Positions 8,153 through 41,143 of a stretch of 64,000 nucleotides of DNA are shown here, one piece after another (position 1 is the stretch's first letter; each line of letters begins with the position of its first letter). Position numbers and translations under genes: made by a program. Under the pieces are notes generated by a model. That model made no database searches. It saw only the letters and a program-made list of their open reading frames with translations, and was not told the origin of the DNA. The stretch is from [Phialemoniopsis] sp. UDSM-2020 (Eukaryota > Ascomycota > Sordariomycetes > Thyridiales > Thyridiaceae): NCBI GenBank assembly GCA_018873225.1, contig JAEILZ010000002.1, forward strand, positions 3,472,001 through 3,536,000, given 5' to 3'.

Positions 8153-9201
8153 TCAAGGGTTCTCGTTCAGGCGTGTCGTAAGTTGGGTAAAGTTATCAAG
8201 CCGAGCTGTGGAACATGCGCACAAGCCCTTGGTCTTCTCGGCTTCTAGTCGCTCCCTGAAGAATACATCAAAGGGAGTGACCTCCCTGGGATCGGCAAGG
8301 CGGAAGTTGAGAATCCACCCCTCAACAAGACGCCATGTGATGCTCAATTCCATTAGGAAGCCCCAATCATGTCGGCCTACCCAGTATTGAGGTCCAACAA
8401 TGATCTTCGACCCCGACCGCACGATGCAAATCCTGCCGGCCACTTCCTGGGCACCTTGGATAATCTTGCAGTCTCGTCCAAGAAACATGGGGTAGGCCTC
8501 TCTCGGTAATTCCATCTCGAAGGGACCGCAGCCTCGATGCCAGGGATCACTACCAAAGACTTGCTTCCACAACAGTTTCCGTGTGTTGAGGTCTGGAACC
8601 CATAGTGGGGAGTTGCTATTGAGAGCGGCATACGCGGCAGTCTTCACTTCGACAGCAAATGGCTCGATACCGCTTGCTGCAAGGCCACCATATGTGTTCA
8701 GGTCGAGTCTTAGCTGTGTTTCGATATGCCGGGCGATTTGGACTCCTTTGACTATTTTTTCAAAGTTAGTAAATAAGTTGCGGCGCTCTTCTGACATGCT
8801 GGGACAGACTTACGAAGTGCAGTAAAGAGTTTCCAGTCTACTCGTGCATGAAAATATTCCGCAGAGACTTCAAGTGGTGAAGGTTTACCTTCGTTGAGAA
8901 TCTCTTTGCAAACCAGGTCCGTAGCTTGGCGCACCACCGAATCAACATTGGCTCTCGAGAGCCTGCCGATGTCGATAGCGCACTCTAATATGACCCAGCG
9001 CCGTTTTTCAGTCCTCTTCGAGAGACCGGGCCGGGAGGACGCGCCTGGTGACAGGGGGGGCTGTTCTTTCTTCTCTGGGGATAAATAGATGATGGTAATA
9101 ACCAACAGAAAGAAGAGAGAAATGGCAATCATTTCTAGGCTGTTGTTGCTGCTATCTCTAGTCGGGTTAACAATGTAGGCGTTGTTGTTAATTGAAGCCA
9201 T
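8153..9201 (-). CDS. Single-pass membrane protein of unknown family (paralog A)
   Basis: Two exons, 8814-9201 and 8153-8751, with a 62-base intron (GTAAGT, CTAAC branch site, TAG), give 328 residues. Residues ~23-41 are a transmembrane helix (IAISLFFLLVITIIYL), followed by a Pro/Ser/Arg-rich linker and a cytosolic-type domain of ~250 residues. Conserved with its paralog at 28050-29085: SAEYFHARVD, ARHxETQL, LWxQxFGxDPWxRG, PFExELPRxA, AQEVAG and a Trp-rich end near the C-terminus. The intron lies at the same codon and phase in both copies. I do not recognise the family and see no catalytic motif. It lies downstream of a HET-domain gene, a context common for accessory, fast-evolving fungal genes. 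Function unknown. Confidence 0.82.
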
Positions 9202-10013
9202 GTTGCCGGTCGATGGGGATTCTCTTATTGATAGGTTGATTGGTGGGTTGAACTATGGATTGATTGATGGGTCGAAGGAGAATGTCAACCATGATGGTAG
9301 TGGTAGGTTTGGTGATATTTATACGAATTATCCATAGTGGAGTTGCTGTAGTGAATGAGAGACAAGTGTGCAAGAGCGTGGAGCTGGAGGCTGCGTCCAG
9401 TGAAGTTCAGGAGATGCTGGCCTTGAATGAATGCGAAAGTTCAGGAACTTCCTCCACTGTGACTCTTCTTCGTTGTCTTATCCTTTGTCTATATAGTGAA
9501 AGTTTGCTCATCCCACCAAACAAGTCTGGCTTCTTGGTGAACAAAGCTACTTGTCAGTCACCAGACTCTTTCTTTAAGTAGTGATTAATGTAGTTATTAG
9601 TCTATAGGGTTGTTTGACTCTCGAAGAAATCCAAGACATTGCATGCTTGCTTTGAAGCCTTTGCGTGGCTTTGGTATATTAACGCTCTTCCCTGTGGGGT
9701 CTCTGGATTGCTGTGATGTGTTTGTAAGAGATCTCTACAAAACTATTATCATTCTTTGATGGGATTTGCTCCCTGTTCTTGTTGGCAAAGGATTTCTCTA
9801 ACTTGTCGCCCTTTCACAGAGCTCTATGTAGTCGTTGCGTCGTACTCAGCTGGCCTTGGTCCCTGATTCGCCAAGGCGCGTAGTTAGTAGTGAAGGCAGA
9901 TCTTGTGATTGGCAATGCCTCTATGCTTGTTGTGGTGAGTGATCTCATACATTCTTCAGTTGATGAGATACAGTAATCGCAATGCTAGAGCTCCATAGCA
10001 AACCCTACTGAAT
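9202..10013. other. AT-rich intergenic region
   Basis: About 810 bases with no supported gene. The first ~170 bases (9260-9370) resemble the region 5' of paralog B at 29130-29245 (shared GATRGTRGTGG and GGTRATATTKATA-like blocks), so the promoter was probably copied with the gene. Confidence 0.5.
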
Positions 10014-17401: not shown

Positions 17402-18635
17402 TTAACTTGCATGGTCGACGAGAGCAGCCTCTACTTTGACCACAGCCTCGATATACTCATTTTGCATGAGAGCCACACCTTGCTCAGCGCTCATGGGAAG
17501 CAATGGCTTCCGCGGATTCGCTGCGTATTGGAACCTCTGATGTACCATCATCTTCAAGCCGGCGATCTAGATGCGAAGTTAGGGCGGTATATGTACGCAA
17601 AGACCATCGAGACTTACACCAACGCCAGCTGCAACGCCATCAGCTAGTGCCAACATCTGTTGCAGCTTCTGTGCCTCCAAGTATTCTGCCGAGTCCTGAC
17701 TGGCTCTCGAGTCGGCTAGCCTCCAGAGCTTGACGCAAATATTCTGGTAATGCTTATTAGCATGTGGGATAACCCATATCCATACAGGTTGACATACTGG
17801 TGCGATGTTTGGAAGCCCGGAAATGGCCTAATGATGCTCAAGTTAACAAATAGCGAAGCCCAGTTCATGTCATTGTGTTGCTTACCCCTGCGGCTCCGCT
17901 CGACATTGACGGAAGCAAGATGTCGATATAACCATCAATGATCTGGAACTCCTGGTCTGCCTGTTTCCTGGGATACCTTGCCTGAAAATCCTTGGATCCT
18001 ACGATGGCGCCTAACCTTGTTATTTTGCCGACATTGGCGCAGCTGGCAGAATGTTAGGAAGACTTATTGGGTCCCTCATATACAAAGCCCCGGACTTACG
18101 TAAGTTTGACACCGAATATGTTACTGCTCTGCCGAGCCACATCTACGATGAGGTCGCTGCTGAGATCGATGCCGCTCGAGACGCCCGGAAAGTTATACAT
18201 AACAACAGGGATCGGACTGGCCTCGGCAACGTCGACAAAGAATTGCTTGATTGCGACTCCGTTGTCTTTCTGCAGCTGGCCGGCGTAGTAGCCAGGTGGT
18301 ATCACCATGGCATAGTCTGCACCAGCGGCTGCGGCGTCTTTGGCAAGCGAGATCGTTTCGCGGGTGCTTAGTGTCCCGACTCCAGCAACGATTGGCACAT
18401 CTGTCAGGCCTTCCGCATCCAGTGCCGAGCGGGCAGTCTGGATGAGTTGTATTCGCTCTGTTGGCAACAGGTGTCCCGCCTCGCCTGCAGACCCGGCTAC
18501 AACAGGAACCGTGCCTGCCTTTGAGACATACACGACATGCTTGGCAAAGGCGTCAAGGTCGAGGTCTTCGTTCTCGAGAAAGAACGTCGGCAGCGGCGTG
18601 TAGATGCCTCTCGGTAGGGGCCGGTGCATTGCCAT
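17402..18635 (-). CDS. DapA-family (dihydrodipicolinate synthase/4-hydroxy-2-oxoglutarate aldolase-like) lyase
   Basis: Five exons on the minus strand: 18100-18635, 17886-18042, 17798-17827 (30 bases), 17618-17743 and 17402-17566, giving 337 residues, the usual length for fungal members. Class I aldolase (TIM barrel) motifs: GSAGEAGHLLPTER (~47-60, substrate carboxylate loop), IPPGYYA, VMYNFPG with the catalytic Tyr, and GVKLTC with the Schiff-base Lys. The Lys codon and the following LTCANVGKITR are restored only by splicing. Family reactions are cleavage or condensation of 2-keto acids with pyruvate; the exact substrate is unknown. It is the first member of a probable catabolic cluster, with two CGCCGA sites in its promoter. 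The 54-base intron 17744-17797 contains a core match to the dispersed repeat. Confidence 0.9.
17764..17775 (-). repeat. Core match to the dispersed repeat inside an intron (copy D)
   Basis: GTGGGATAACCC (minus: GGGTTATCCCAC) lies in the middle of a 54-base intron of the aldolase-family gene. Only the 12-base core is exact, so homology to copies A-C is uncertain. Confidence 0.4.
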
Positions 18636-19049
18636 GATTGCTGCAAAATGTCAATGTTGGCTTACCACTCCTCACAATGCGGTAAGTGGTTCTCAAAACA
18701 GAAAGATATCGTAGACTCTGGTTCACAAGGCACACTGGGTACACTGGGCAGTGACACATCTGCCACTAGACGATTAGTAGAAACCTTGTTATCGATATGC
18801 GCTGGGGAAGACTAAGACAAGCAATCACTGGGAGATCTTCAAATCGCCGAGTCGCCGAATCCAATGACAAGCTCCGAATTTTCATGACCACGCTACTCTA
18901 GTTCGGACCTACCCCGACTCTGTCAGTCATGCAGCATGCAGGTTCCCGAGGACCGGGAATAGGCGGGTGGGCCAGATCTCAATCACAGATTCATGAAGGT
19001 CGTGGAAAATAACCATTACTCGTAGTGAAGGTGCTTATCTTTGTCTAAT
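18636..19049. other. Promoter space of the aldolase-family gene
   Basis: About 410 bases between the start of the aldolase-family gene and the stop of the dihydropyrimidinase gene. It holds two CGCCGA copies (see 18845-18858); nothing else recognisable. Confidence 0.55.
18845..18858 (+). promoter_or_regulatory. Paired CGCCGA sites, candidate regulator binding site
   Basis: CGCCGAGTCGCCGA: two direct copies of the hexamer spaced 8 bases apart, about 210 bases upstream of the aldolase-family start codon. The same hexamer recurs in the other two promoter spaces of this cluster. Confidence 0.45.
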
Positions 19050-20606
19050 CTATAGCATCTCGAGATCAAAGTCTCCCTCCTCATCTACCCTTTCCCAGAC
19101 ATTGTTTAGCGTAGCTGTCTCACGCTTGACAAACTGGCCGTATCCCTTGCCGCCAACAATACCACCGTTGTCTCTGTCCCAGACTACTTTGCCTCTCAAT
19201 ATGGTGTACCTCGGCCAATTGGCAATGTGACGTCCCTTCAGCGGTGTATAATCCACATCGTGATGTAGCATCTCGTTTGTAAGATGGAAGTTTGGTTCCT
19301 TGCTGTCCGGGTACCAGATCACCAAGTCGGCGTCAGAAACTCCGGGAATCATGGCTCCCTTTCGAGGGTACATGCCATATAGCTTTGCCGCATTCGTAGA
19401 GGTGACCTCGACGAACTTTGTGACAGCCATGTTCTTCGCCGAGAACGTGACTGGCATCCTGGTCTCAATCATCGGGATCCCGTTGGGTATGTACTTGAAC
19501 CGGCCGACAGGGTATTCCTCTGTAATGCACGTCTTCTTGCCCGTCTCGGCATCGTCATATTTGAAGGGGCAGTGGTCCGAGCTGAGGACCGAGAAAGTGC
19601 CGTTTCGGAGGCCTTTCCAGATGAGTTTCTGATCGGCTTCGTTCCTAGGTGGTGGCGAGCAAACACACTTTGCACCTTCGAAACCAGGCTTGTCCATATC
19701 CTTTCTCGTCATAAAGAGATATTGAGGACATGTCTCGGCAAAGATGGGCTGCCCATGAGTCTGCGCCTCCCTGATCCGGAAAGTTGCGCCTGGATCGCTG
19801 ACATGCACTAGCAATATCGGAGTATTGTTGATCAGCGAGGAGAGAGCAATAGCGCGGTTGGTAGCCTCCGCCTCCAGAATGGGTGGCCTGGAGTTGCTGT
19901 GATATTTTGGCGCGAACAGCTTCTTCTCTTCGAGCTTGTCTGTGAGCCAGTTCAAGACGTCGCCGTTTTCGGCATGAATCATCGTGATGATCTTGTTTTC
20001 CCGGCAGGCAAGAAGGATTGTCAAGATCTGGTAGTCGCTAAGCTGCAGCGCGGTATAGGTCATGTAGATCTTGAGAGAGCTGACACCCTCTTCCTCTTTG
20101 AGCTGTTTCAGCTCGGAGATGGCTTTGGGGCCCGGGTTCGCGACCAAGAGGTGCATGCCATAGTCGCAGTAACAGTTGCCGCTGGCCAACTTGTGCGTGG
20201 CGCTGAGCGCGGCGAGCAGAGACTCTTCGTGTTTCTGCTGCGGAGCGAACGACACAATGGTGGTGGTGCCTCCTGCAATGGCGGATCGAGTCCCGGTCTC
20301 GTAGCTATCTGCAGATGATCCCTTGCCAAACATACTCGGCTCCTGAAGATGTACATGGCAGTCGATTCCTCCCGGCTGTTCAATCGGTCAGTATTTTTTG
20401 CATTGCGAGATCAGGTGTCCACTTACCATGACAAAACCGCCCTCCGCATCGATCAGCTTCTTTGTGCTGGCATTTGCCAACGAACCTGATGGGGCAAGAA
20501 TCGCGATCTTCTCATCTTTGATACCGACATCGTATGTAGCAATATCAGACGCTGTTACACATACACCATTGGTGATGACAAGATCGTACTCGTGAATCAC
20601 AGTCAT
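19050..20606 (-). CDS. Dihydropyrimidinase / hydantoinase (cyclic amidohydrolase)
   Basis: Two exons, 20427-20606 and 19050-20375 (51-base intron), give 501 residues. Amidohydrolase motifs: PGGIDCHVHLQEP (HxH metal site, formed just after the splice), GGTTTIVSF, SLKIYMTY with the Lys that is carboxylated in this family, MIHAENGD (His), LVHVSD (His) and LSSDHCPF (Asp). The family hydrolyses 5,6-dihydropyrimidines, hydantoins or related cyclic ureides to N-carbamoyl amino acids using two divalent metals; no mitochondrial or secretory signal is visible, so it is probably cytosolic. The start ATG at 20606 gives the standard YDLVITNG opening; the frame extends upstream only with non-ATG codons. 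It faces away from the Zn2Cys6 gene at 21096, sharing a 490-base promoter space. Substrate is uncertain. Confidence 0.92.
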
Positions 20607-21095
20607 GTTCACAGCTTGCACACTGGCTATGCGGGGTTCACTACAGAGCAAGGATGTGAAGTTGTCTCGCTACAATTTTCCACAGCAGAGTACGAAGCAG
20701 CTGTGGTGCTAACAACGCAGCTGGCGGTTAGTGCACCTAACCTTGTTGCAGCGGGCGACTCTTCGGAATAGAGTTGGCCGCCGCTAGATAACACGGCCGG
20801 ATATAATATCCACTAGCTCCTTGGAATTGGGAGCCTAAACATCGAATTGTAAACTATGAGATAACAGAAACTGCTATCTTGATCGGCAAGGTGGGTGGTT
20901 ATCAGTCGGTGCTTTTGATTTGATAAGGCTCAGCGACCCGCCGATTAGCAACCCCTAGCCCCTTTTAGTCAAGTCCACTCACTACCAAGTACGCCGCTGA
21001 TCACAACGCGGGGAATGATAGACCCTGTCATTTCCGGTATCCGGGGATCGGGACATTCGAAATGAGAGTCGTCCAATTCGTCTATCAGGTTGGCG
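20607..21095. other. Divergent promoter of dihydropyrimidinase and cluster regulator
   Basis: About 490 bases between divergent starts. It contains one CGCCGATTAG element (20939-20948), identical over 10 bases to one between the dioxygenase and transporter genes. No gene is seen. Confidence 0.55.
20939..20948 (+). promoter_or_regulatory. CGCCGATTAG candidate regulator site
   Basis: Ten-base match to 25033-25042. It lies 148 bases upstream of the regulator's start codon and about 330 bases from the dihydropyrimidinase start, so it could serve both genes. Confidence 0.4.
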
Positions 21096-23306
21096 ATGCA
21101 GAGAGTTACGCGGGCACAGGCCAACGCAGGTGAGTCTCCCAAGAAATAGAGTCACGGGACAGGAACTGATCACTGTCGAATGACAGGCAGAGTAGCTTGT
21201 ACAATCTGCCATCACCGAAAGGTCAAATGCGATGCTCACGATGGCGGCTTCCCGTGCACCAGCTGTCAAAAGTCAGACCGCTCTCGAGACTGTCATCTGT
21301 ACCTGAAACGCAAGAGAACCTCCAGGGCAAGCAAAGCTCGAGATGACAAGACACCACGTCCCTTTTCAACACCGGGTTCGGTCTTTCTGCCCGCTCCGGC
21401 AAGGGACTCTTCAGTTTCCACCCAAGCAGAGATAGATATCGAGTCTATCCTTGCCGGTAGTGACGCTGCCTCTCTAATCGCTCATGCCACGCCTAGACAT
21501 GTCGAAGAGGGGCAGGTATGCGCTTCCAAATTGGTGTTCCATAACCCTGCAAGAGGCGGTGGGCAGATCGCCCAGGATGAGGGAAGCAGTGGAGATGCCC
21601 GTATTGATCCCTCGATGGACTCGGTTGACGGGGAGTACAAGCGGTATCTGGTCGAATTCATCGACCAGCCTCAGATCACCGAAAGACCCATCGACAAGGA
21701 TGCGAGGATCATGTATGTGGGGAGCGAAGTCTCAAACGTAAACTTCCTCCTAAGACAACAACTTGGAAGCAAGGCATCCGGCGTGTGCCACTACCCGACG
21801 AACCGCATCGCTCGTCAGCATACCTGTCACGAGCCGGACCGGTTGCCGGTCGAAGCCTTTCAATTGCCGCCGAAGCAGGTGGTTGATAGCCTTCTGGCGG
21901 CTTACTTTGAGCACATCAACCCCGGATTCCCCGTAGTCGACGAGGAGCTGTTCATGACGCACTATCGCGCGAAAGATCCGCAGAATGCACCCTCACTATT
22001 GCTTCTCCATGCGATCATGCTCGCCGGGGCTCACGTGCTCTACGAACAACCTCAGAGAGACGCATACAAGGCATTATTCTTCAGGCGAGCAAAGATCCTC
22101 TTCGATGCACGGTTCGAGCGGAATCGTGATGTCGTAGTCCAAGCTGCACTGCTACTTACGTGGCATGCCGATGGTCCGGAAGACGTGGGAGCTAATGGCT
22201 GGCACTGGGTTGGGGTCGCCGCCCGACATGCAACTGGCCTTGGTATGCATAGAGATGCGGAGAATAGTACGCTTGTGGCGCACAACAAGAGGATGTGGAG
22301 GCGTGTGTGGTGGCTCTTGTTTCAGTGCGATGTCCTCGTGTCACTACAGTACGGCCGACCACAATCAATTCATCTGGACGACACAGACGTCAAGATGCTT
22401 CAACCAGCCGACTTCCAGGGTTGTGGAGCAAAGACACGAGTTGAGCATGTGATCCACGCCACAGAGCTTTGTGTGATCATCTCGAAGATTCTTCGACAGC
22501 AGATTCACTCGGGCAAATCAGCAGAGGATCGGATGGCGTCAATGCGAAAAGCTGATGAATCCCTTGCCAATTGGTCAATCCAATTACCGCAACCGCTACA
22601 ACTCAATATCGGCCCCAACCTTGACCCTTGGACTGCAATTCTTCAGCTGCAATACAATACGGTTTTACTCCTACTTCACCGGCAACAGCCGTACCCCAAC
22701 CCTGGCGACGGTGTCCGACCCGACGACGTTGATATATCTGCAAATGCGGCAGTAGCCATACAACAGATATTCCTGTATCTCAGTGACAGAGGCCAAGTCA
22801 AATATCTCTGGACCTCGGCAATTAACTACCTCTTCACAGCGCTGATCCAGCTCAGCGTCGAGGTCCGGATAGCCAATCCGGTTCTCGCCATATCAGCCAT
22901 AAGGAGATACGACTCAGCCTTGTCCTGTTTGAGAAAAGTTGCAGAATATTGGCCAAACGCGCAATCAGTTGTTGAGTTCTTTGAGAACTCGGTGCGGCTG
23001 CAGGCCAGTAACGAAACCACAGTAGATCAGGGGCGATTCGCAGCAGGCGATCCAAATGTCAACGATATGGGCCAACAGTTAGATCCCCGAGTAGTAGATC
23101 AGTCCGAGAACTTCAATATCGCTCTCCAGTCTCTCGAGTCGAGCACGGACGCCGATGGTCTGGATCTGGCTCAGCTCTTCACCAATATTGTAACAGGACG
23201 TCAATTTCAGCAGGCGGAGGTCGATGCTGTTAATCCGTGGAGCGACTGGCAAAGGATTTACTGGCAACGGCCCGAGTGCCCCGATGACATTTTATTCACC
23301 TTCTAA
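21096..23306 (+). CDS. Zn2Cys6 transcription factor, probable regulator of the catabolic cluster
   Basis: Exons 21096-21129 and 21187-23306 give 717 residues. The first exon codes only 11 residues plus one base; splicing yields NAGRVACTICHHRKVKC. The zinc cluster is CTICHHRKVKC...CTSCQKSDRSRDC, followed by a basic linker (LKRKRTSRASKAR). The fungal-specific transcription factor domain covers ~235-480: YFEHINPGFPVVDEELF, DVGANGWHWVGVAARHATGLGMHRD, RRVWWLLFQCDVLVSLQYGRPQSIHLDDTDV. It sits in the middle of the catabolic block, divergent from the dihydropyrimidinase and convergent with the dioxygenase, the usual place for a pathway-specific regulator. The CGCCGA hexamers in the cluster promoters are candidate targets; one is in its own promoter, suggesting autoregulation. 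The role is inferred from position. Confidence 0.92.
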
Positions 23307-23417
23307 TACGAATTATGATTGAACCAAAGTCTTAATAGTTATTATGTATTTGCTATACGATCTACTCTGTAGGACTAGATCCAAGTGACTGTTTGTTCAT
23401 CCATGGCATTCACATGC

Positions 23418-24667
23418 TCAGCACAGACCAAGCTGGACCCTGCCAATATCCCTCTCACACTCGCCATCATCCTCTTCAATCTTTGCTGGGATCGGCTTGT
23501 TAGCCAGAGGAGTCAACCTAAAGGCATGGCGACGCTCTCCAGCAGGGTAATCGAGGGTCTGAGAGTGGTTAGTGATCCTCTGGTCCCAAACAAGCACAGT
23601 GCCGGCCTCATATCGGATACGGCATTGGAAGTCTTGACGCTTGGCGATGTGGTCAAATAAGAAGCCAAGCAAGTAATCTGACTCTTCCTCGTCGAAGCCC
23701 ACTGACCAGATATTAGCAATTTGCAACGAGACAATTACTCCAGAAGAAAAGTGACTTACCAATCTTCTTGGTATATACGGGGTTCACGTAGAGAGCCTTC
23801 TCCTTGGTGACAGGGTGTACGATGACCACGGGGTGTTCCTGGACGAGCTCTTGCCTCCGCATCACCGCCGCTTCGCCGTTCTTCAACTCCTGCGTCACAC
23901 CATCGTTGTTCGTGTGGATCGCAGTGAGGCCCTCAAGCCTCTTACGGAATCGCGGTGAAAGAGACTTGAATGCCTGTACGCTCGAGCTCACCAGAGTGTC
24001 ACCTCCGGCAGCCGCTGGGGACTCCAGCATGCAGATGAATGTGGTGCCGGGCGTTTGCGGTTCAGGCGACTGATCTGTGTGCCATTGGATAGGGGACCTT
24101 CCTTTCCACGATTTGCGAACGCGAAGATCTCTGCGATCGCTAATTAGTGGTAGTTGGAGCAAAATGGGCGCGTGATTCTCACTCTTTGTGGTCATAAATG
24201 ACCATGTGCTCTGCGCTCCCAGCAGCAGGATGCGGCGCCCATCCGTGAACATGCAGAGGGCCAAAATGGCTAACAATCTTCTTTTGAGCCTCAAAACCGA
24301 TGTCCCGGAAGTCCTGATTACGGAAGACCAAGGCGCCGCGCTTCGCTGCCATCAAGGCCAGCTCATCGAGACCAGCAGGCGATAATTGCGACAGCTGGAC
24401 GCCCTCAATCTCGGTGCCGATATGCGGCGACAGGTCGATGACCTTGGTGGCATCGGCCAGCAGGTTGGCCAATGTTGGGTCCGCCCGGTGGCCAGGATCA
24501 TAGTGATCGAACGTGCCAAGATCCTCAACCTTTTCCAAGGGATCATAGAAGGGCATGTAGTCCGGGTACAATGGTTTATCGTCGGCATTCTTTGCGCGGG
24601 TGGTCAACTTCTTCGCCAGCATGCCCTCGGTGGGCGATGCCACAGTCTCGATAGCAGAAGGTGCCAT
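23418..24667 (-). CDS. TauD/TfdA-family Fe(II)/2-oxoglutarate dioxygenase
   Basis: Three exons, 24183-24667, 23760-24130 and 23418-23701, give 379 residues, typical for fungal taurine/sulfonate-type dioxygenases. The iron site is WHTDQSPE (HxD) and the distal His in RITNHSQTLDYP; the 2-oxoglutarate-binding Arg is in GERRHAFRLTP. The N-terminal block PLYPDYMPFYDP...FDHYDPGHRADPTLANLL and SPHIGTEIEGVQLSQL are hallmarks of this subfamily. Known members hydroxylate next to a sulfonate, sulfate or ether carbon and release sulfite, sulfate or alcohol; here the substrate is unknown. No targeting signal is seen, so it is probably cytosolic. It is divergent from the transporter gene with a 690-base promoter space holding six CGCCGA copies, which argues for co-regulation. 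Confidence 0.92.
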
Positions 24668-25354
24668 AGTGTGAATGGTGTGATAAGGTGATTCGCGCAA
24701 ATAGAAACTAATCACTCAGAATGCTGTCATCAAGCGAGATGCTTAGTCGAATCTAGCCAACACTTAGTTATCAGTGTGATGCATGCGACTCCTTAAATGC
24801 AAAGTCATCTAAGTTCAACAAGGAGGTCGAAGTTCAGGCGCCGAACATTCCAGAGCAGGATCGGCTCATGTGGTGCGACTTTCGGCGATTATTGCCACCG
24901 CTCCGGCGCATGTCCGTTGATGCGACCTGAATAAGCGCGGAGTGCATCACTGACTGATCCATTCCCTGATATCTGATAGATGCAGACATGATAGCCTACT
25001 CGGCGACGTTTCGCGTTATCCGGCATCATCATCGCCGATTAGTCACAGCCAATGAAAAGCGCCGAAGTTCAACTTCAATCGCCGAGACAGAACCCACTCC
25101 TGATAACGACTGGGGACGCTACCCCAGATTTACCAACCCACATGATGTCGCCCTCTGAAGGGGTTGGCATTAGCACGGCTTAGCTCGAGATAAGCATCAA
25201 GATAGTTGATATATCGCCCACCACTCCATCCTCCAACTGTATCATGTTGAGCAGAGCATATATAGCCCTTCAACATCTAAGGATCAACCCGGTCCTGAGT
25301 TGTTGATCATTACCCTTCAGCATCATTGGTCATAAGACTGAATCACTTACAGCC
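24668..25354. other. Divergent promoter of dioxygenase and transporter
   Basis: About 690 bases with no gene. It holds a dense group of CGCCGA sites (see 24839-25085) and, nearer the transporter, a TATATAGC-like element around 25258-25265, about 90 bases before that start codon. Confidence 0.6.
24839..25085. promoter_or_regulatory. Cluster of six CGCCGA sites
   Basis: CGCCGA occurs at 24839-24844, 25033-25038, 25060-25065 and 25080-25085 on the plus strand, and its complement TCGGCG at 24882-24887 and 25000-25005. Most copies are followed by A or G then A/T-rich bases. In random sequence of this length about 0.1 copy would be expected, so this is a strong candidate operator array for both flanking genes. 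Confidence 0.6.
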
Positions 25355-27150
25355 ATGCCTTCTTCCGAAGTTTCTTCTGCCGAGGATGTCGAAAAGCGCG
25401 TTCCCGAGCAGAAGGTTGCTGCCGGGGACACCTCCGAGGGCTTCGTCTCCAGCCACAACCCCGAGTATGAGCGTTACCTTGAACTCCATCGTCAGTTCGA
25501 AGGTGCTAGTCGCAAGAAGCTTCTACGAAAGCGTAAGTCTGGCTCGCCCAGTCTGCTGAAGCCGTATATGACGCCCATGCTAACGGGAGGTCAGTGGACT
25601 GGCGACTGCTGCCAACCTTGAGTTTTCTGTACCTCATGTGTTCTCTTGACAAGAGCAACGCAGGCAATGCAAAGGTTCGTAGCTGGCTTCTAGAGGGACC
25701 CTTGTGACAACTCTAGCTAATCATGCGCCCAGCTGTTCGGTTTTCTCGAAGATGTCGGCATGACACCAACCCAGTTCAACCTGGCGCTGATGTATCTTTT
25801 CTTCACCTACGGTCTCTGCGAACCCGTCTCCAACATTATGCTCCGTCGTCTGGGACCCAAGATTTGGTTTCCCTGCATTGTGGTTGCGTGGGGTCTCGTC
25901 ACGACTTTGACTTGCCTCGTCAAAAACTATGGGTCCTACGTCGTGATTCGCCTTGTGCTCGGCATGACTGAGGCTGGCCTTTACCCGGGATCGTACTTTA
26001 TTCTGAGCATGTGGTATACACCCAAGGAGATTGCTACAAGGTAAGGGATCCAAAACTGCTAGGAGCGGAACGACATGCTGACATTGGTCGACAGAATGGC
26101 CATCTTCTACGGTGCTAATACCGCTGCCGGTGCCTTTGGTGGTGTCATCGCATACGGCGTCGGTAACCTCGACGGAGTGCATGGTTGGAAGGCCTGGAAG
26201 TGGCTCTTCCTTATCGAGGGGATCATTACCATCGTTGCTGGGTTAATGACCTACATGTTCCTGCCGTAAGTTACGACCTGAATTGTCATCCAAAACATCA
26301 TGTACTGACAGGACCAAGACATTTCCCGCACCAGTACGACGAGAAGACCAGGTCGAGGTGGCTCACCGAGTCTGAGCTCCAATACGCGCAACTCCGAGTC
26401 AAGTACGCTTCCGGCCCCGACGCCCCGACGTACGTCTTCCGCTGGAGCGACGTCGCCGCCGCTGCCAAGGACCGCAAGACATATCTCATGATGATGCTCT
26501 TTTGGTGGGGTGGATCAGTGCCGACCTACTCGCTCTCCTACACACTGCCTACCATGGTCAAGAACCTGGGCTACACGGCTGTCAAGGCGCAAGCCCTCAC
26601 CACGCCACCATACATCTTCGCCACTTGCGTCTGCGTCTTTGTCGGATGGATGAGTGACCGCTACCAGCGCCGCTTCTTCAGCATCATGAGCTGCTACTGC
26701 TTGGGCTTAATTGGGATCATTATTCTGTGGGTAACTACGCACTACCAAAACCTTTACGGAGTCAGCTACTTTGCCATCTTCCTTGCTGCGGCTGGCTACT
26801 CGGCTCAGGCCCCTATTGTCGGCGCCTGGACTTCTGTCAACGTACCTAACCCCTCCAAGAGGGCCGCTGCCATCGGTCTTCTGATGCTGTTCGGCTCCGT
26901 CGGAGGCGGCAGCATTGGCAGCAACATCTATCTGGCATCAGAGGCTCCAACTTACCCACTTGGGTTTGGTTTCTCGATCGGTGCAACCGTCGTTGGTGCC
27001 ATGATCCCAGCAACCATCCACTGGCTCTTGATGCGGAGAGAGAACAAAAGACGAGACGCCATGGATATTGACGAAATCCAAGCCCGTCACACACCAGCTG
27101 AACTAAGCGAGATGGGCGAAGACTCGCCGCTTTTCAGGTATACATTGTGA
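25355..27150 (+). CDS. MFS transporter, anion:cation symporter (Dal5/allantoate permease-like)
   Basis: Five exons, 25355-25532, 25595-25674, 25733-26040, 26095-26265 and 26319-27150, give 522 residues. The last acceptor is CCAAG at 26317-26318, chosen because it alone keeps the frame (FLPHFPHQYDEK). Signatures of the ACS family: VDWRLLP-type start (here LDWRLLPTLSFLYLMCSLDKSNAGNAK), KIWFPCIVVAWGLVT, RLVLGMTEAGLYPGSYFILSMWYTPKE, WKWLFLIEGIITI and the RWLTESEL loop. About 12 membrane segments are expected. Family members import allantoate, ureidosuccinate, nicotinate, tartrate and similar anions at the plasma membrane. Beside a cyclic-ureide hydrolase, a ureide or carboxylate substrate is attractive but inferred. 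The dense CGCCGA sites upstream suggest control by the cluster regulator. Confidence 0.93.
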
Positions 27151-27822: not shown

Positions 27823-28030
27823 TCTTCGCCGATGAGCATGCACATCGACAAGGCGCCCATGTGAAACCTCGAGATCGCCGACGTCGCGGCCAAAGACTAC
27901 CCGTCCCTCTTCGACGGCCGCAGCCTCCTGCGCGAGTGGCAAGGGGTGGCCCGGCAGGGCAATGACAGCGTCTGCAAGAGGACCCTCAACGTCGACTCCG
28001 AAGACTCCATCGACAACGGCGGTAAGCCCT
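27822..28030 (+). pseudogene. GC-rich gene remnant of unknown family, with an in-frame stop
   Basis: An open frame from an ATG at 27822 reads 14 codons to a TGA at 27864-27866, then continues for ~50 codons with normal G/C-ending codon choice (containing LFDGRSLLREWQGVARQG and DSEDSIDNGG) until a GGTAAG that looks like an old donor site. Codon use is unlike the AT-rich flanks. No downstream exon is seen; the sequence beyond is the antisense of paralog B. I do not recognise the family. It is probably a truncated fragment carried in with the tandem repeat or the duplication. Confidence 0.4.
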
Positions 28031-28049
28031 ACTTTGCGCGCAAATTCTC

Positions 28050-29085
28050 TCAGGCATTGGCGTTGAGTTGCGTCGTGATCCTCGTAAAGTTGTCGAGGCG
28101 AGCCTCAGCGGATCGTCGCAAAGCCGCGGTCTTCTCCTCCTCCACTCGGCGCCTGAGGAACTGGTCAAAGAAAGGTGCGAGATCCGGTCGGAGGCGGAAG
28201 TTGCCAATCCACGACTCGAGAAGCCGCCAGATAATGCTCAGTTTGAGCAAAAAGCCCCCATCATACCGCTTTACCCAGGACTGAGGGTCGACCACAACTC
28301 TTGAGCCGTTTTGAATTATACAGACACTGCCCGCAACTTCTTGTGCCCTTCGCAGTATCTCACAGCCCTGTCCCAGGAATTTGGCACAGGCTTGTCGTGG
28401 CAACTCGATTTCAAAGGGGTCACGGCCCCGTTGCCAAGGATCACCGCCGAATATCTGACGCCAGAGGTTCAGCCGGGTATTGAGAGACTTTGCCCAGTTC
28501 AGCGGCGCGTTGTTCATGGCGTTGAGTGCGGCGGTCGACACTTCAACTGCAATAGGCGGAACGCGGATAGCATCGTCACCTCCAAAGGCGGTCGTATCGA
28601 GTATTAGCTGGGTCTCCAAGTGTCGAGCGATGGGCACGCCTTGAACTGTTCATCAAATTTAGCAAAGTCGTAAGACTCAAGCAACCATCTAGGGTAGACT
28701 TACGAAGCTTATAGAAAAGGACTTGGTCGACACGCGCGTGGAAGTACTCTGCCGAAACTTCAAAGACTGACAACCTAGCTTCTCGGATAATCACATTGCA
28801 GACCGTCTCAGTAGCGAGACGGATCAAAAGCTCTATGTTGGCACTTGAGAGCTTCTTTACATCGATGCCATAGTTTATGATGTCCTTACGCCGCTGGATC
28901 GACCTGGGGCTGATACTCGGCCAGGAAGACGTGCTTGTAGCCACATGAAGATCCTTTTTGATGATGAAGCGGGTGGAAAAGATGGCGAAGATGATGAAGA
29001 AGATAAAATAGGCAACGTCCATGATGCCACTATCACAATCCATCGCGTCGTTGATGATTCTCAGGTTGTGGTTGATGGCAGCCAT
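28050..29085 (-). CDS. Single-pass membrane protein of unknown family (paralog B)
   Basis: Two exons, 28704-29085 and 28050-28645 (58-base intron), give 325 residues. Same layout as paralog A at 8153-9201: short N-terminus (MAAINHN against MASINNN), transmembrane helix at ~23-42 (VAYFIFFIIFAIFSTRF), polar linker, then the conserved domain with SAEYFHARVD, PIARHLETQL, LWRQIFGGDPWQRG, PFEIELPRQA, AQEVAG and SWIGNFRL. By eye about half of the positions in the domain agree. The intron position and phase are identical. Function is unknown. The two genes bracket roughly 19 kb that includes the HET gene, two regulators and the catabolic cluster. Confidence 0.82.
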
Positions 29086-29814
29086 TTTGTTGTTGCGGTT
29101 AAGGATTGTCTTTGGCTGATGACTTTGAAAGTAACAGAAATCAAGATAGTGGTGGGGCTGTTGGTAATATTGATATGGGCTCTTTTGAGATTAAAATTAA
29201 TATGACTATTGGCACAGAGGAGCTGTTAGAGTGAATGGATGGCAGCCTGGGCCAGTAACCGTTGTATGAGCTGGGTGAAGGGATGCCCAGAAGGCTTCAT
29301 CAGCCTTTATTAACAGAGCATGCTCCCACATCTTGAGTCGAATACAATGTTTGTCTTTCCTTGTCAAATAGCCTTGCGCATCTTAACAAAGACTCGCGCT
29401 TTCTGGACATCACAGGCCGTTTGATCCCCAAATCAGCCCGTGAATCACATATTCGCTTTCAAGTCTGAAGGCTCAAGCTGGCTTTGGCATACTCAAGTTG
29501 TCTTCTTTGCGGCGGCAAACAACACTTTGAAAGCCTTTGTCGTGGATCCATCCTTGTGCTGCCGTTAGCTCCCTCATGTACCTTGTGCTTTGTTTCCATT
29601 GCCAATGTGCTCTTCCATCAAATGGTTCCTTTCATGGCCACCAAGGGGGATCCTCGATGACTAAAGTGGATGCAAGCAGACTGATTGTAAAGCCACGACT
29701 ACTTTCTTGAAAGCCATTAAATGTATATAGCGGATACCTATTACGGATTACATATAGCCAAGAACTCTAGGAAACAAGCAAAAGTCACACACACGGTCAA
29801 GCCTCACTGGTTAT
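29086..29814. other. AT-rich intergenic region
   Basis: About 730 bases; the first 160 resemble the 5' region of paralog A. No gene is seen. Confidence 0.5.
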
Positions 29815-39408: not shown

Positions 39409-41143
39409 TTACTTGTACAGCGTTATACCGCCATCGTCACAGTCAGTCTCTTCTCCCAGCGATATGTACAACTCCTCATCGTCGCTTGTCGATGGGGTCG
39501 CGCTCAGGTCGGTTCGATCGGCCTGTGACATGGTATCACTCCCGGAGGCAGACTCTTCCGGGTTCTGGAAGTACTCTGGCCATTCCGAATGGGTGTTTGA
39601 ATCGTGATTCTTGTATCTAGTTTTGCGCTCCACGAGTGTCCTCTTTGCATCTTGCCGCACGCTGTCGGTAATTTCTTCCAACAGCTCAAGCCTGGTCTGC
39701 TCCGCGCCTGGCCCCTGGTCCTCGTACAAGTCCGGGAGGCGCCATCTGGGGTACAGGTTTCGGTGCGAGCTTCGAATAGTGACGTCGTCCGGGTGATTCT
39801 GAAAGTAATAGGCACAGAGGCGGCATGGGGGCTTGCTTGTGCCAATGTACTTCCAGCTGTTCCAGTACTGGACGCCTCGATTGAGGAGGTAGTCATGGAT
39901 CAACATCTCGGCATGGACCATTGGTCGCTGCATCTTGGGCACTTGCGCCCGAATGAGTTTGTTGAGTTCGCACATCTGCTCGAGATCTGCGGCCTTGGTC
40001 AAATACGTTTCCGGATCATCAATGTCCATTCCACTGATGATCTCAACTGCCGTGTGGTCATCAGAAGATTTGAGGGGTCGACCGCGAGGTTTCTTGGATG
40101 GGACTACGGTGATGGTGAAATCGCGAAAGAGTGCTGGCCAGCGCTCCTCGGAAGAGATGATGATCTCTGCTGCCTGACGATAGGAGTGCAAGCGCCCAAG
40201 GTAATGACGCAATTCGCACCAAGGCTCCGAGCTTGAGAGTTCCCCATCCTTCGCTTTACCGATAATAGCCTCCTCAACCTTGCTTCCTTTGATGGAGACT
40301 ATGGCCTTGATGAGGGTCTCACAATCAGACAGGACTAGAGTAGCAGTATGTCAGAACATATCTCCAGGTTGCATAAGATTAACCCACATTTAGCCCGATT
40401 TTCAGGAGATGTTCCAATCTCCGTAACGAAGCTAGCCCTCGATAACAACAATTCCAATTCCGTTTGGAGAGTTGCTGGTCAATGTTAGCGAAGTGCTTCA
40501 TCTCAACAACAGATATGGGTCCACCTCACTATCGCTCGTGTCTTGCCTAGAGCAATGTGCAAGACATTCTCTCAGGTGTTTGCACAAGTTGTTGATGTAA
40601 GGCCTGACTCTTTCGTAGTTGAATAGCAAAATATGCCACAACACTTGCTTGAGCAGAGTCTTGGATTTGACCTTTTCTTCACGAAGCTTGGGCACAGACT
40701 CGAGGAGAAGCTTGAGGAAGCTCGATACATCCTCTAGCTGGAATTGGTCTCGGTTGTTGGATCCGATGATGTACTCGGGCCCAACAGAACCCTGCAGAAC
40801 AGCTATGGCGGAAATTGTGTCGCCTCCCCGCTCGCTGTCACAGACTTGTGCGAGCTTGTAGACAAAGCACCGGAAGGCCTGTGCCCCGGTCACCAGGGAG
40901 TCACTCCCCGACGGGGCCGCCTCGTCTTCTCGGGCTCGAGAATGTGGGAATGCCCCCTTGATCGCGCATTCGAGAGCGATAGGCTGATACAAAAGTCTCT
41001 CAAGGTCAAGATCAATTGGGATCAACCTCCGCGGCCCGACAAGGCTTTGAGTGCCATCTTCTGATCATTCTTCGTTAGTATCGACGTGCCAACAGGGCTA
41101 TGAAAGATTCTGTGTAGCACTTACCCACTGCGACATGTGCCAT
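39409..41143 (-). CDS. OTT_1508-like deaminase-fold protein
   Basis: Four exons, 41125-41143, 40530-41060, 40388-40474 and 39409-40334, give 520 residues; the first exon codes only six residues. The donor at 40524-40529 (GTGAGG) was chosen because it alone links the third exon (TLQTELELLLSRASF) in frame. The C-terminal half has a zinc deaminase signature: MVHAEMLIHDYL (HAE) then GTSKPPCRLCAYYF (PCxxC), ~30 residues apart, with NHPDDVTIRSSHRNLYPRWRLP after it, as in the fungal OTT_1508-like deaminase family. The N-terminal half is helical with no known motif. An acidic Ser-rich tail ends the protein. Such domains occur in nucleic-acid or toxin-like deaminases; the substrate here is unknown. 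Divergent from the C2H2 gene. Confidence 0.8.

What the first reader, a model, noticed from the sequence alone, without database searches (positions are those of the whole stretch)
17402..27150. Probable catabolic gene cluster: aldolase, hydantoinase, regulator, TauD dioxygenase, ureide-type permease
Five neighbouring genes with no housekeeping gene among them encode uptake (Dal5-like anion symporter), ring opening (dihydropyrimidinase/hydantoinase), oxidation (TauD-type 2-oxoglutarate dioxygenase), C-C cleavage (DapA-family lyase) and control (Zn2Cys6). Each enzyme family is read from motifs; the combination is, to my knowledge, not a described pathway. It could degrade a cyclic ureide or a substituted hydantoin, or a sulfonated or ether-linked relative. 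The substrate is inference.
Basis: partly seen in the sequence, partly recalled or inferred. Interest (0 to 1): 0.75.

Follow-up and report, generated by a model that had tools for sequence, protein, structure and literature searches.

The report
Fungal nutrient-scavenging gene cluster, substrate unknown
Five neighbouring genes in a filamentous fungus look like one jointly controlled unit for importing and dismantling a small organic molecule, probably as a nitrogen source; two of the enzymes are also found side by side in a range of other fungi, and what they break down remains unknown.

Summary
All five genes are present, intact and end exactly at the quoted coordinates (17402-27150), and the enzyme families are right: DapA-type lyase, D-hydantoinase/dihydropyrimidinase (H), Zn2Cys6 factor, TauD dioxygenase, MFS permease. 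(1) Linkage in other fungi is conserved but uneven. DapA and TauD share a contig or adjacent tags in 21 named fungi plus one unnamed contig (6 named counter-examples); H shares DapA's contig in 8 of the 16 organisms listed with both. The same genome holds a second MFS-TauD-Zn2Cys6-DapA locus without H. So TauD+DapA is the core and H a frequent accessory. (2) The three cluster promoters carry 9 CGCCGA (0.6 expected) and 16 GATA sites (5 expected), suggesting one pathway regulator plus nitrogen control. The genome's two other close H paralogues each lie with a carbamoylase-type amidase; this one does not. Best reading: a nitrogen-regulated catabolic cluster in which TauD oxidatively frees a 2-oxo acid that DapA cleaves, H sometimes feeding in a ring-opened ureide. 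Chemistry and substrate are inferred. Sulfonate scavenging is the main rival. Seven searches of an open-access library listed no paper describing this set.

The parts
17402..18635 (-). DapA/DHDPS-family class I lyase (HOGA-like fold), 337 aa, 5 exons; Schiff-base Lys177, Tyr147, GSAGE carboxylate loop (roles recalled)
   Evidence: model; Pfam DHDPS
19050..20606 (-). D-hydantoinase/dihydropyrimidinase-type amidohydrolase (H), 501 aa, 2 exons; His67, His69, Lys162, His194, His251, Asp327 (roles recalled)
   Evidence: TIGR02033 443.3 bits, cut-off 393.25; 2fty best PDB match
21096..23306 (+). Zn2Cys6 transcription factor, 717 aa, 2 exons; presumed cluster activator
23418..24667 (-). TauD/TfdA-family Fe(II)/2-oxoglutarate dioxygenase, 379 aa, 3 exons; iron ligands His179/Asp181/His331, Arg343, and Arg347 and His141 in the places of TauD's anion-binding residues (roles recalled)
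25355..27150 (+). MFS permease, 522 aa, 5 exons
18636..19049 (.). DapA promoter stretch with 2 CGCCGA and 2 HGATAR sites (counted on 18636-19050)
20607..21095 (.). divergent H / Zn2Cys6 promoter: 1 CGCCGA, 7 HGATAR
24668..25354 (.). divergent TauD / MFS promoter: 6 CGCCGA, 7 HGATAR

Best explanation
A co-regulated, probably nitrogen-controlled catabolic cluster. The MFS protein imports an organic anion. The TauD enzyme hydroxylates a carbon next to a heteroatom of a small anion, which then falls apart to a 2-oxo acid (or aldehyde) plus the released N-, O- or S-compound. The DapA-family enzyme forms a Schiff base with the 2-oxo acid and cleaves it to pyruvate plus an aldehyde. H is a frequent, not obligatory, feeder enzyme that opens a hydantoin- or dihydropyrimidine-type ring to an N-carbamoyl acid. 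The Zn2Cys6 protein switches on the three promoters through CGCCGA elements and a GATA factor adds nitrogen control. Shown: intact genes, families, catalytic residues, linkage in other fungi, shared motifs. Inferred: substrate, order of steps, the reactions, and binding of the factor to CGCCGA.
Against: DapA and TauD lie on different contigs in 6 named organisms and H and DapA in 8 of 16 (draft breaks and paralogues may inflate this). Xylaria and Nemania species are in the H list but not in the listed TauD rows. TauD-family plus Dal5-family transporter pairs are already linked with sulfonate use in other fungi (passages of PMC5303821), and a 208-bp sulfatase relic lies just beyond the MFS gene. 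CGCCGA was noticed by eye before testing; some 6-mer reached 9 or more in 3 of 1000 shuffles; 6 of the 9 sites are in one promoter. The C7 locus has only 2 CGCCGA in the 1411 bp looked at. GATA sites are also fairly frequent upstream of the C6 hydantoinase (5 in 760 bp). Absence of a CYS3-type site says little (0.12 expected). Conservation of permease and regulator in other fungi was not tested directly. No expression or substrate data.
Confidence: 0.5

Rival explanations
1. Sulfonate or sulfate-ester scavenging cluster: the permease imports a sulfonate, TauD releases sulfite, and DapA and H process the carbon skeleton.
Against: GATA enrichment, and no CYS3-type decamer (0 seen, 0.12 expected, so weak). 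The five aligned basidiomycete rows of about 50% identity have HPTSGN where the 21 others have HGW(A/M)PHP; whether those five are JLP1-like was not tested. Neither DapA nor H has an obvious job in sulfonate use.
Confidence: 0.25
2. Two modules side by side: an orphan TauD-DapA-MFS-Zn2Cys6 catabolic unit, and a hydantoinase that works in another pathway and merely sits between them.
For: Second locus on C7 lacks H. H on another contig than DapA in 8 of 16 organisms. Linked H rows do not form one clade; at least 10 state changes on the tree.
Against: H shares its divergent promoter with the regulator, GATA-rich with one CGCCGA. H lies on a contig with DapA and/or TauD in 11 named organisms plus one unnamed contig besides this genome. 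The six H-linked TauD rows in the tree are all of the focal clade; three more H-linked ones (P0254, P0255, P0257) are 79-84% identical to the focal TauD.
Confidence: 0.2
3. Hydantoin or reductive pyrimidine degradation of the known type, with H followed by an N-carbamoylase encoded elsewhere; TauD and DapA then handle side chains.
For: About six TIGR01879-type amidase genes elsewhere in the genome. H keeps the dihydropyrimidinase/hydantoinase residues.
Against: The genome already has H with carbamoylase-type amidase at C8 and C6. None of the 14 TIGR01879 matches in the genome lies in this window.
Confidence: 0.1

Closest known systems
Fungal JLP1/Soa1-type sulfonate use (TauD-family enzyme next to a Dal5-family permease)
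   Same: TauD-family dioxygenase beside an MFS permease (PMC5303821, passages)
   Different: Here with DapA lyase, H and own Zn2Cys6 factor; a TauD group with HGW(A/M)PHP (21 of 21 non-outgroup rows) and a Cys-ending tail (18 of 21); GATA-rich promoters
Hydantoin-utilisation clusters (hydantoinase + N-carbamoylase, often racemase and NCS1 permease; recalled)
   Same: D-hydantoinase-type enzyme over the TIGR02033 cut-off; layouts of this kind exist in this genome at C6:320-328 kb and C8:23-27 kb
   Different: No carbamoylase-type amidase match in this window and an MFS permease; TauD and DapA instead
TfdA/RdpA aryloxyalkanoate dioxygenases
   Different: About 30% identity in the aligned core, bacterial; no DapA or H partner known to me (recalled)
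Human 4-hydroxy-2-oxoglutarate aldolase (HOGA1, 3s5n/3s5o)
   Different: HOGA works in hydroxyproline breakdown (recalled); substrate here unknown

Membership tests
D-hydantoinase/dihydropyrimidinase | score over curated cut-off TIGR02033 | tested here: met
   443.3 bits, cut-off 393.25
D-hydantoinase/dihydropyrimidinase | binuclear metal ligands incl. carboxylated Lys; Tyr, Ser, Asn of the substrate site | tested here: met
   His67, His69, Lys162, His194, His251, Asp327; Tyr167, Ser300, Asn358 aligned to 2fty; residue roles recalled
Allantoinase | score over TIGR03178 cut-off | tested here: not met
   214.5 bits, cut-off 357.85
Hydantoin-5-propionate amidohydrolase ErtD | score over NF058538/NF058539 cut-offs | tested here: not met
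   129 and 182.6 bits, cut-offs 600 and 650
Hydantoin-utilisation (hyu-type) cluster | N-carbamoylase near the hydantoinase | tested here: not met
   none of 14 TIGR01879 matches lies in this window; present at the C6 locus (367.6 bits, cut-off 204) and, in two ORFs each under the cut-off, at C8
TauD/TfdA dioxygenase | HxD...H iron triad, 2-oxoglutarate Arg, Pfam TauD | tested here: met
   His179, Asp181, His331, Arg343; Pfam 1.5e-52
Taurine dioxygenase (NF007104) | score over curated cut-off | tested here: not met
   157.2 bits, cut-off 313 (a model made for bacterial and archaeal genomes)
JLP1 sulfonate dioxygenase | sulfonate turnover; orthology to JLP1 | not tested
   no JLP1 sequence was compared; activity not testable here
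4-hydroxy-tetrahydrodipicolinate synthase (DapA) | score over TIGR00674 cut-off; Arg after YNxPx | tested here: not met
   101.2 bits, cut-off 206.15; YNFPGV, Val152 where DapA has Arg138 (Arg recalled)
4-hydroxy-2-oxoglutarate aldolase | retro-aldol of 4-hydroxy-2-oxoglutarate | not testable with these tools
   fold and Lys/Tyr agree, activity unknown
Dal5/ACS permease family | placement among Dal5-type MFS symporters | tested here: inconclusive
   MFS_1; 2A0114 165.4 bits, cut-off 395; no fungal reference compared

The most novel reading that the evidence does not exclude
A carbamoylase-free ureide pathway: H opens a hydantoin to an N-carbamoyl acid; TauD, in TfdA/RdpA fashion, hydroxylates the alpha carbon so that the product collapses to urea plus a 2-oxo acid; DapA cleaves that acid to pyruvate plus an aldehyde. 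TauD thus replaces the carbamoylase-type amidase that accompanies the two other close hydantoinase paralogues of this genome.
Probability: 0.12. Interest if true: 0.75.

Novelty: new variant of a known kind. Interest (0 to 1): 0.5.

Why it matters
A TauD-DapA pair kept together in many fungi, of several classes (class names recalled), and without a substrate that I could find in print is a concrete gap in fungal nutrition. The cluster supplies its own regulator, a candidate binding element and testable enzymes. If the ureide reading is right it would be an oxidative way of freeing urea from N-carbamoyl acids.

Tried and rejected
Bacterial counterpart: a scan of genome contigs with the TauD alignment confirmed 1 of 37 candidate stretches, at 27% identity; its surroundings were not examined. 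UaY/PPR1-type TCGG-N6-CCGA (recalled): 2 in the window, 1.06 expected, neither in the cluster. The longer WTCGCCGA occurs 15 times in the window (4.77 expected), 4 of them in the cluster promoters and the rest elsewhere. Contigs 257488 (P0014, DapA, Sporothrix thermara) and 257487 (P0201, H, unnamed) differ by one base in length and were not counted.

Limits of the linkage counts. They come only from the 120 best rows of each search (of 439, 8000 and 678 matches), with members of 90% clusters hidden, and from contig lengths typed by hand into, where two neighbouring TauD rows (P0357, P0358) were swapped; the Neocucurbitaria row is P0358. DapA-TauD on different contigs: Coleophoma crateriformis, Periconia macrospinosa, Colletotrichum kahawae, Aspergillus stella-maris, A. 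oleicola, and the basidiomycete Macrolepiota fuliginosa (its TauDs are of the 50% kind). Penicillium roqueforti rows are from different strains and were not counted. The 8-of-9 tag count leaves out JGI model numbers (Baudoinia, A. oleicola), which are not positional (recalled); the miss is Coleophoma crateriformis. DapA-H on different contigs: Xylariomycetidae FL2044, Xylariaceae FL0804 and FL0016, Sporothrix eucalyptigena, Cephalotrichum, A. filifer, Lachnellula suecica, Acephala; Xylariales PMI_506 also has a second H on another contig. H-TauD far apart by tags: Cirrosporium. In the trees Neopestalotiopsis is an exception (DapA in clade I, TauD in II) and DapA clade II is not one clade. The H tree used 46 of the 120 listed rows. 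Control intergenic stretches were gaps between long ORFs chosen by hand and may contain exons.

Literature: searches found no paper; 27, 28, 40 and 72 listed 15, 4, 6 and 10 papers, none of which by title and start of abstract describes this set; riboflavin catabolism (PMC12746152, passages) does not match.
Full report
What is there. The window lies at C4:3472001-3536000 of a 44-Mb, 11-contig genome, fungal by its gene structure and its nearest proteins. The closest named relatives in the protein searches are ascomycetes, mostly Sordariomycetes (class recalled); the species itself was not identified. In order: DapA (-), hydantoinase H (-), Zn2Cys6 (+), TauD (-), MFS (+). H and the regulator share one divergent promoter, TauD and the permease another.

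Families and residues. H passes the D-hydantoinase cut-off and fails those of allantoinase and ErtD; its best solved relative is the dihydropyrimidinase 2fty (from Saccharomyces/Lachancea kluyveri, recalled). DapA fails the DHDPS cut-off, and its model (pLDDT 95) is nearest to 3qfe from Coccidioides and to human 4-hydroxy-2-oxoglutarate aldolase. TauD (pLDDT 83) is nearest to E. coli TauD, then RdpA/AAD-1. Its iron ligands, the 2-oxoglutarate Arg and the residues in the places of TauD's Arg270 and His70 (roles recalled) are invariant in the 26 rows aligned. It belongs to a fungal group, with a few basidiomycetes and a yeast in it, that has HGW(A/M)PHP (21 of 21 rows) and a Cys-ending tail (18 of 21); both are absent from the five basidiomycete rows of about 50% identity.

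Conservation. The protein searches give contig lengths and locus tags, so shared contigs can be read off. Of the 120 best DapA and 120 best TauD rows, 22 contig lengths are shared. One is a coincidence; of the other 21, 20 have the same named organism in both lists and one is an unnamed contig with the same sources. Neopestalotiopsis (g7763/g7764) adds one more by tag. Where sequential tags with one prefix exist in both lists, 8 of 9 species have them 1-3 apart. Six named organisms have the two on different contigs. H shares a contig with DapA in 8 of the 16 organisms where both are listed, and five named organisms have all three on one contig (Thozetella, Xylariales PMI_506, Clonostachys, Stachybotrys elegans, Apodospora). 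In Phialemonium, Cercophora and Anthostomella H and TauD are two tags apart, as here. A gap of one tag between DapA and TauD, as in Sporothrix stenoceras, leaves no room for both H and the regulator between them. A fused gene model in Neocucurbitaria carries TauD and Fungal_trans domains, in keeping with the TauD-regulator neighbourhood.

A second locus in this genome. C7:330-338 kb holds MFS, TauD, Zn2Cys6 and DapA without H; DapA and TauD are 60% and 63% identical to the focal pair, but permease and regulator are only about 26-27% identical over partial matches. TauD falls into two clades (82/93 and 90/98, not starred); the six H-linked rows in that tree are all in the focal clade. So the pair looks like the conserved unit, and transporter, regulator and H vary. 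The H tree places the focal H in a 42-row clade (SH-aLRT 98%) apart from the genome's two other close paralogues, with linked rows scattered in it.

What the other hydantoinases tell. The C8 paralogue (61% identical over its main exon) is divergent from an adjacent carbamoylase-type amidase (TIGR01879, in two ORFs of 197.7 and 108.6 bits, cut-off 204). The C6 one lies with such an amidase (367.6 bits, about 4.6 kb away), an AroM-type protein, an NCS1 permease and a Zn2Cys6-like ORF (the last recognised by eye): ordinary hydantoin-utilisation layouts. None of the 14 TIGR01879 matches in the genome lies in the present window.

Regulation. The three cluster promoters (1591 bp) hold 9 CGCCGA (0.62 expected from 1000 dinucleotide shuffles, none reaching 9) and 16 HGATAR (5.14 expected, 1 of 1000 reaching 16). 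Sixteen control stretches of this window (19,340 bp) have 0.47 and 2.28 per kb against 5.66 and 10.06. The 6-mer was seen by eye first; over all 6-mers the highest count reached 9 in 3 of 1000 shuffles. HGATAR is the AreA/NIT2 site and ATGRYRYCAT the CYS3/MetR site (both recalled); the latter is absent (0.12 expected, so only weak evidence). The C7 MFS/TauD promoter has 6 HGATAR in 558 bp; CGCCGA occurs twice in the 1411 bp looked at there, as a different regulator would predict.

How it probably works. The pairing of a TauD-type oxygenase with a pyruvate-type Schiff-base lyase suggests that the first frees a 2-oxo acid which the second splits. The GATA sites favour nitrogen release. H would supply ring-opened ureides in species that have it. 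None of these reactions was tested. The sulfonate rival rests on published JLP1-transporter pairs (passages of PMC5303821) and on sulfur-controlled TauD-family genes in Candida parapsilosis (passages of PMC11502921), and is not excluded.

Novelty. Seven searches of an open-access library listed no paper that, by title and start of abstract, describes this gene set. The enzyme families are all known; the TauD-DapA unit with H appears undescribed within that limit.

Noticed in passing
window 27834-28041: Relic of a sulfatase gene: 208 bp at 84% identity to C10:1049040-1049247, whose ORFs read as a sulfatase (identified by eye); the frame is broken here.
   Followed up: partly
G000 C6:320-328 kb (L044): Hydantoin-utilisation-like cluster in a fungus: hydantoinase, carbamoylase-type amidase, AroM-type protein, NCS1 permease and a Zn2Cys6-like ORF.
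   Followed up: partly
G000 C8:23.5-29 kb (L042, L043): Hydantoinase divergent from a carbamoylase-type amidase, with an amino-acid permease (Aa_trans) next to it.
   Followed up: partly
window 8153-9252 and 28050-29190: Two ORF sets that by eye look like paralogues of one uncharacterised protein family, some 19 kb apart on either side of the cluster; the two ORFs scanned (8153-8809, 28050-28649) had no Pfam match.
   Followed up: no
window 39409-40350: OTT_1508-like deaminase ORF (Pfam PF14441).
   Followed up: no
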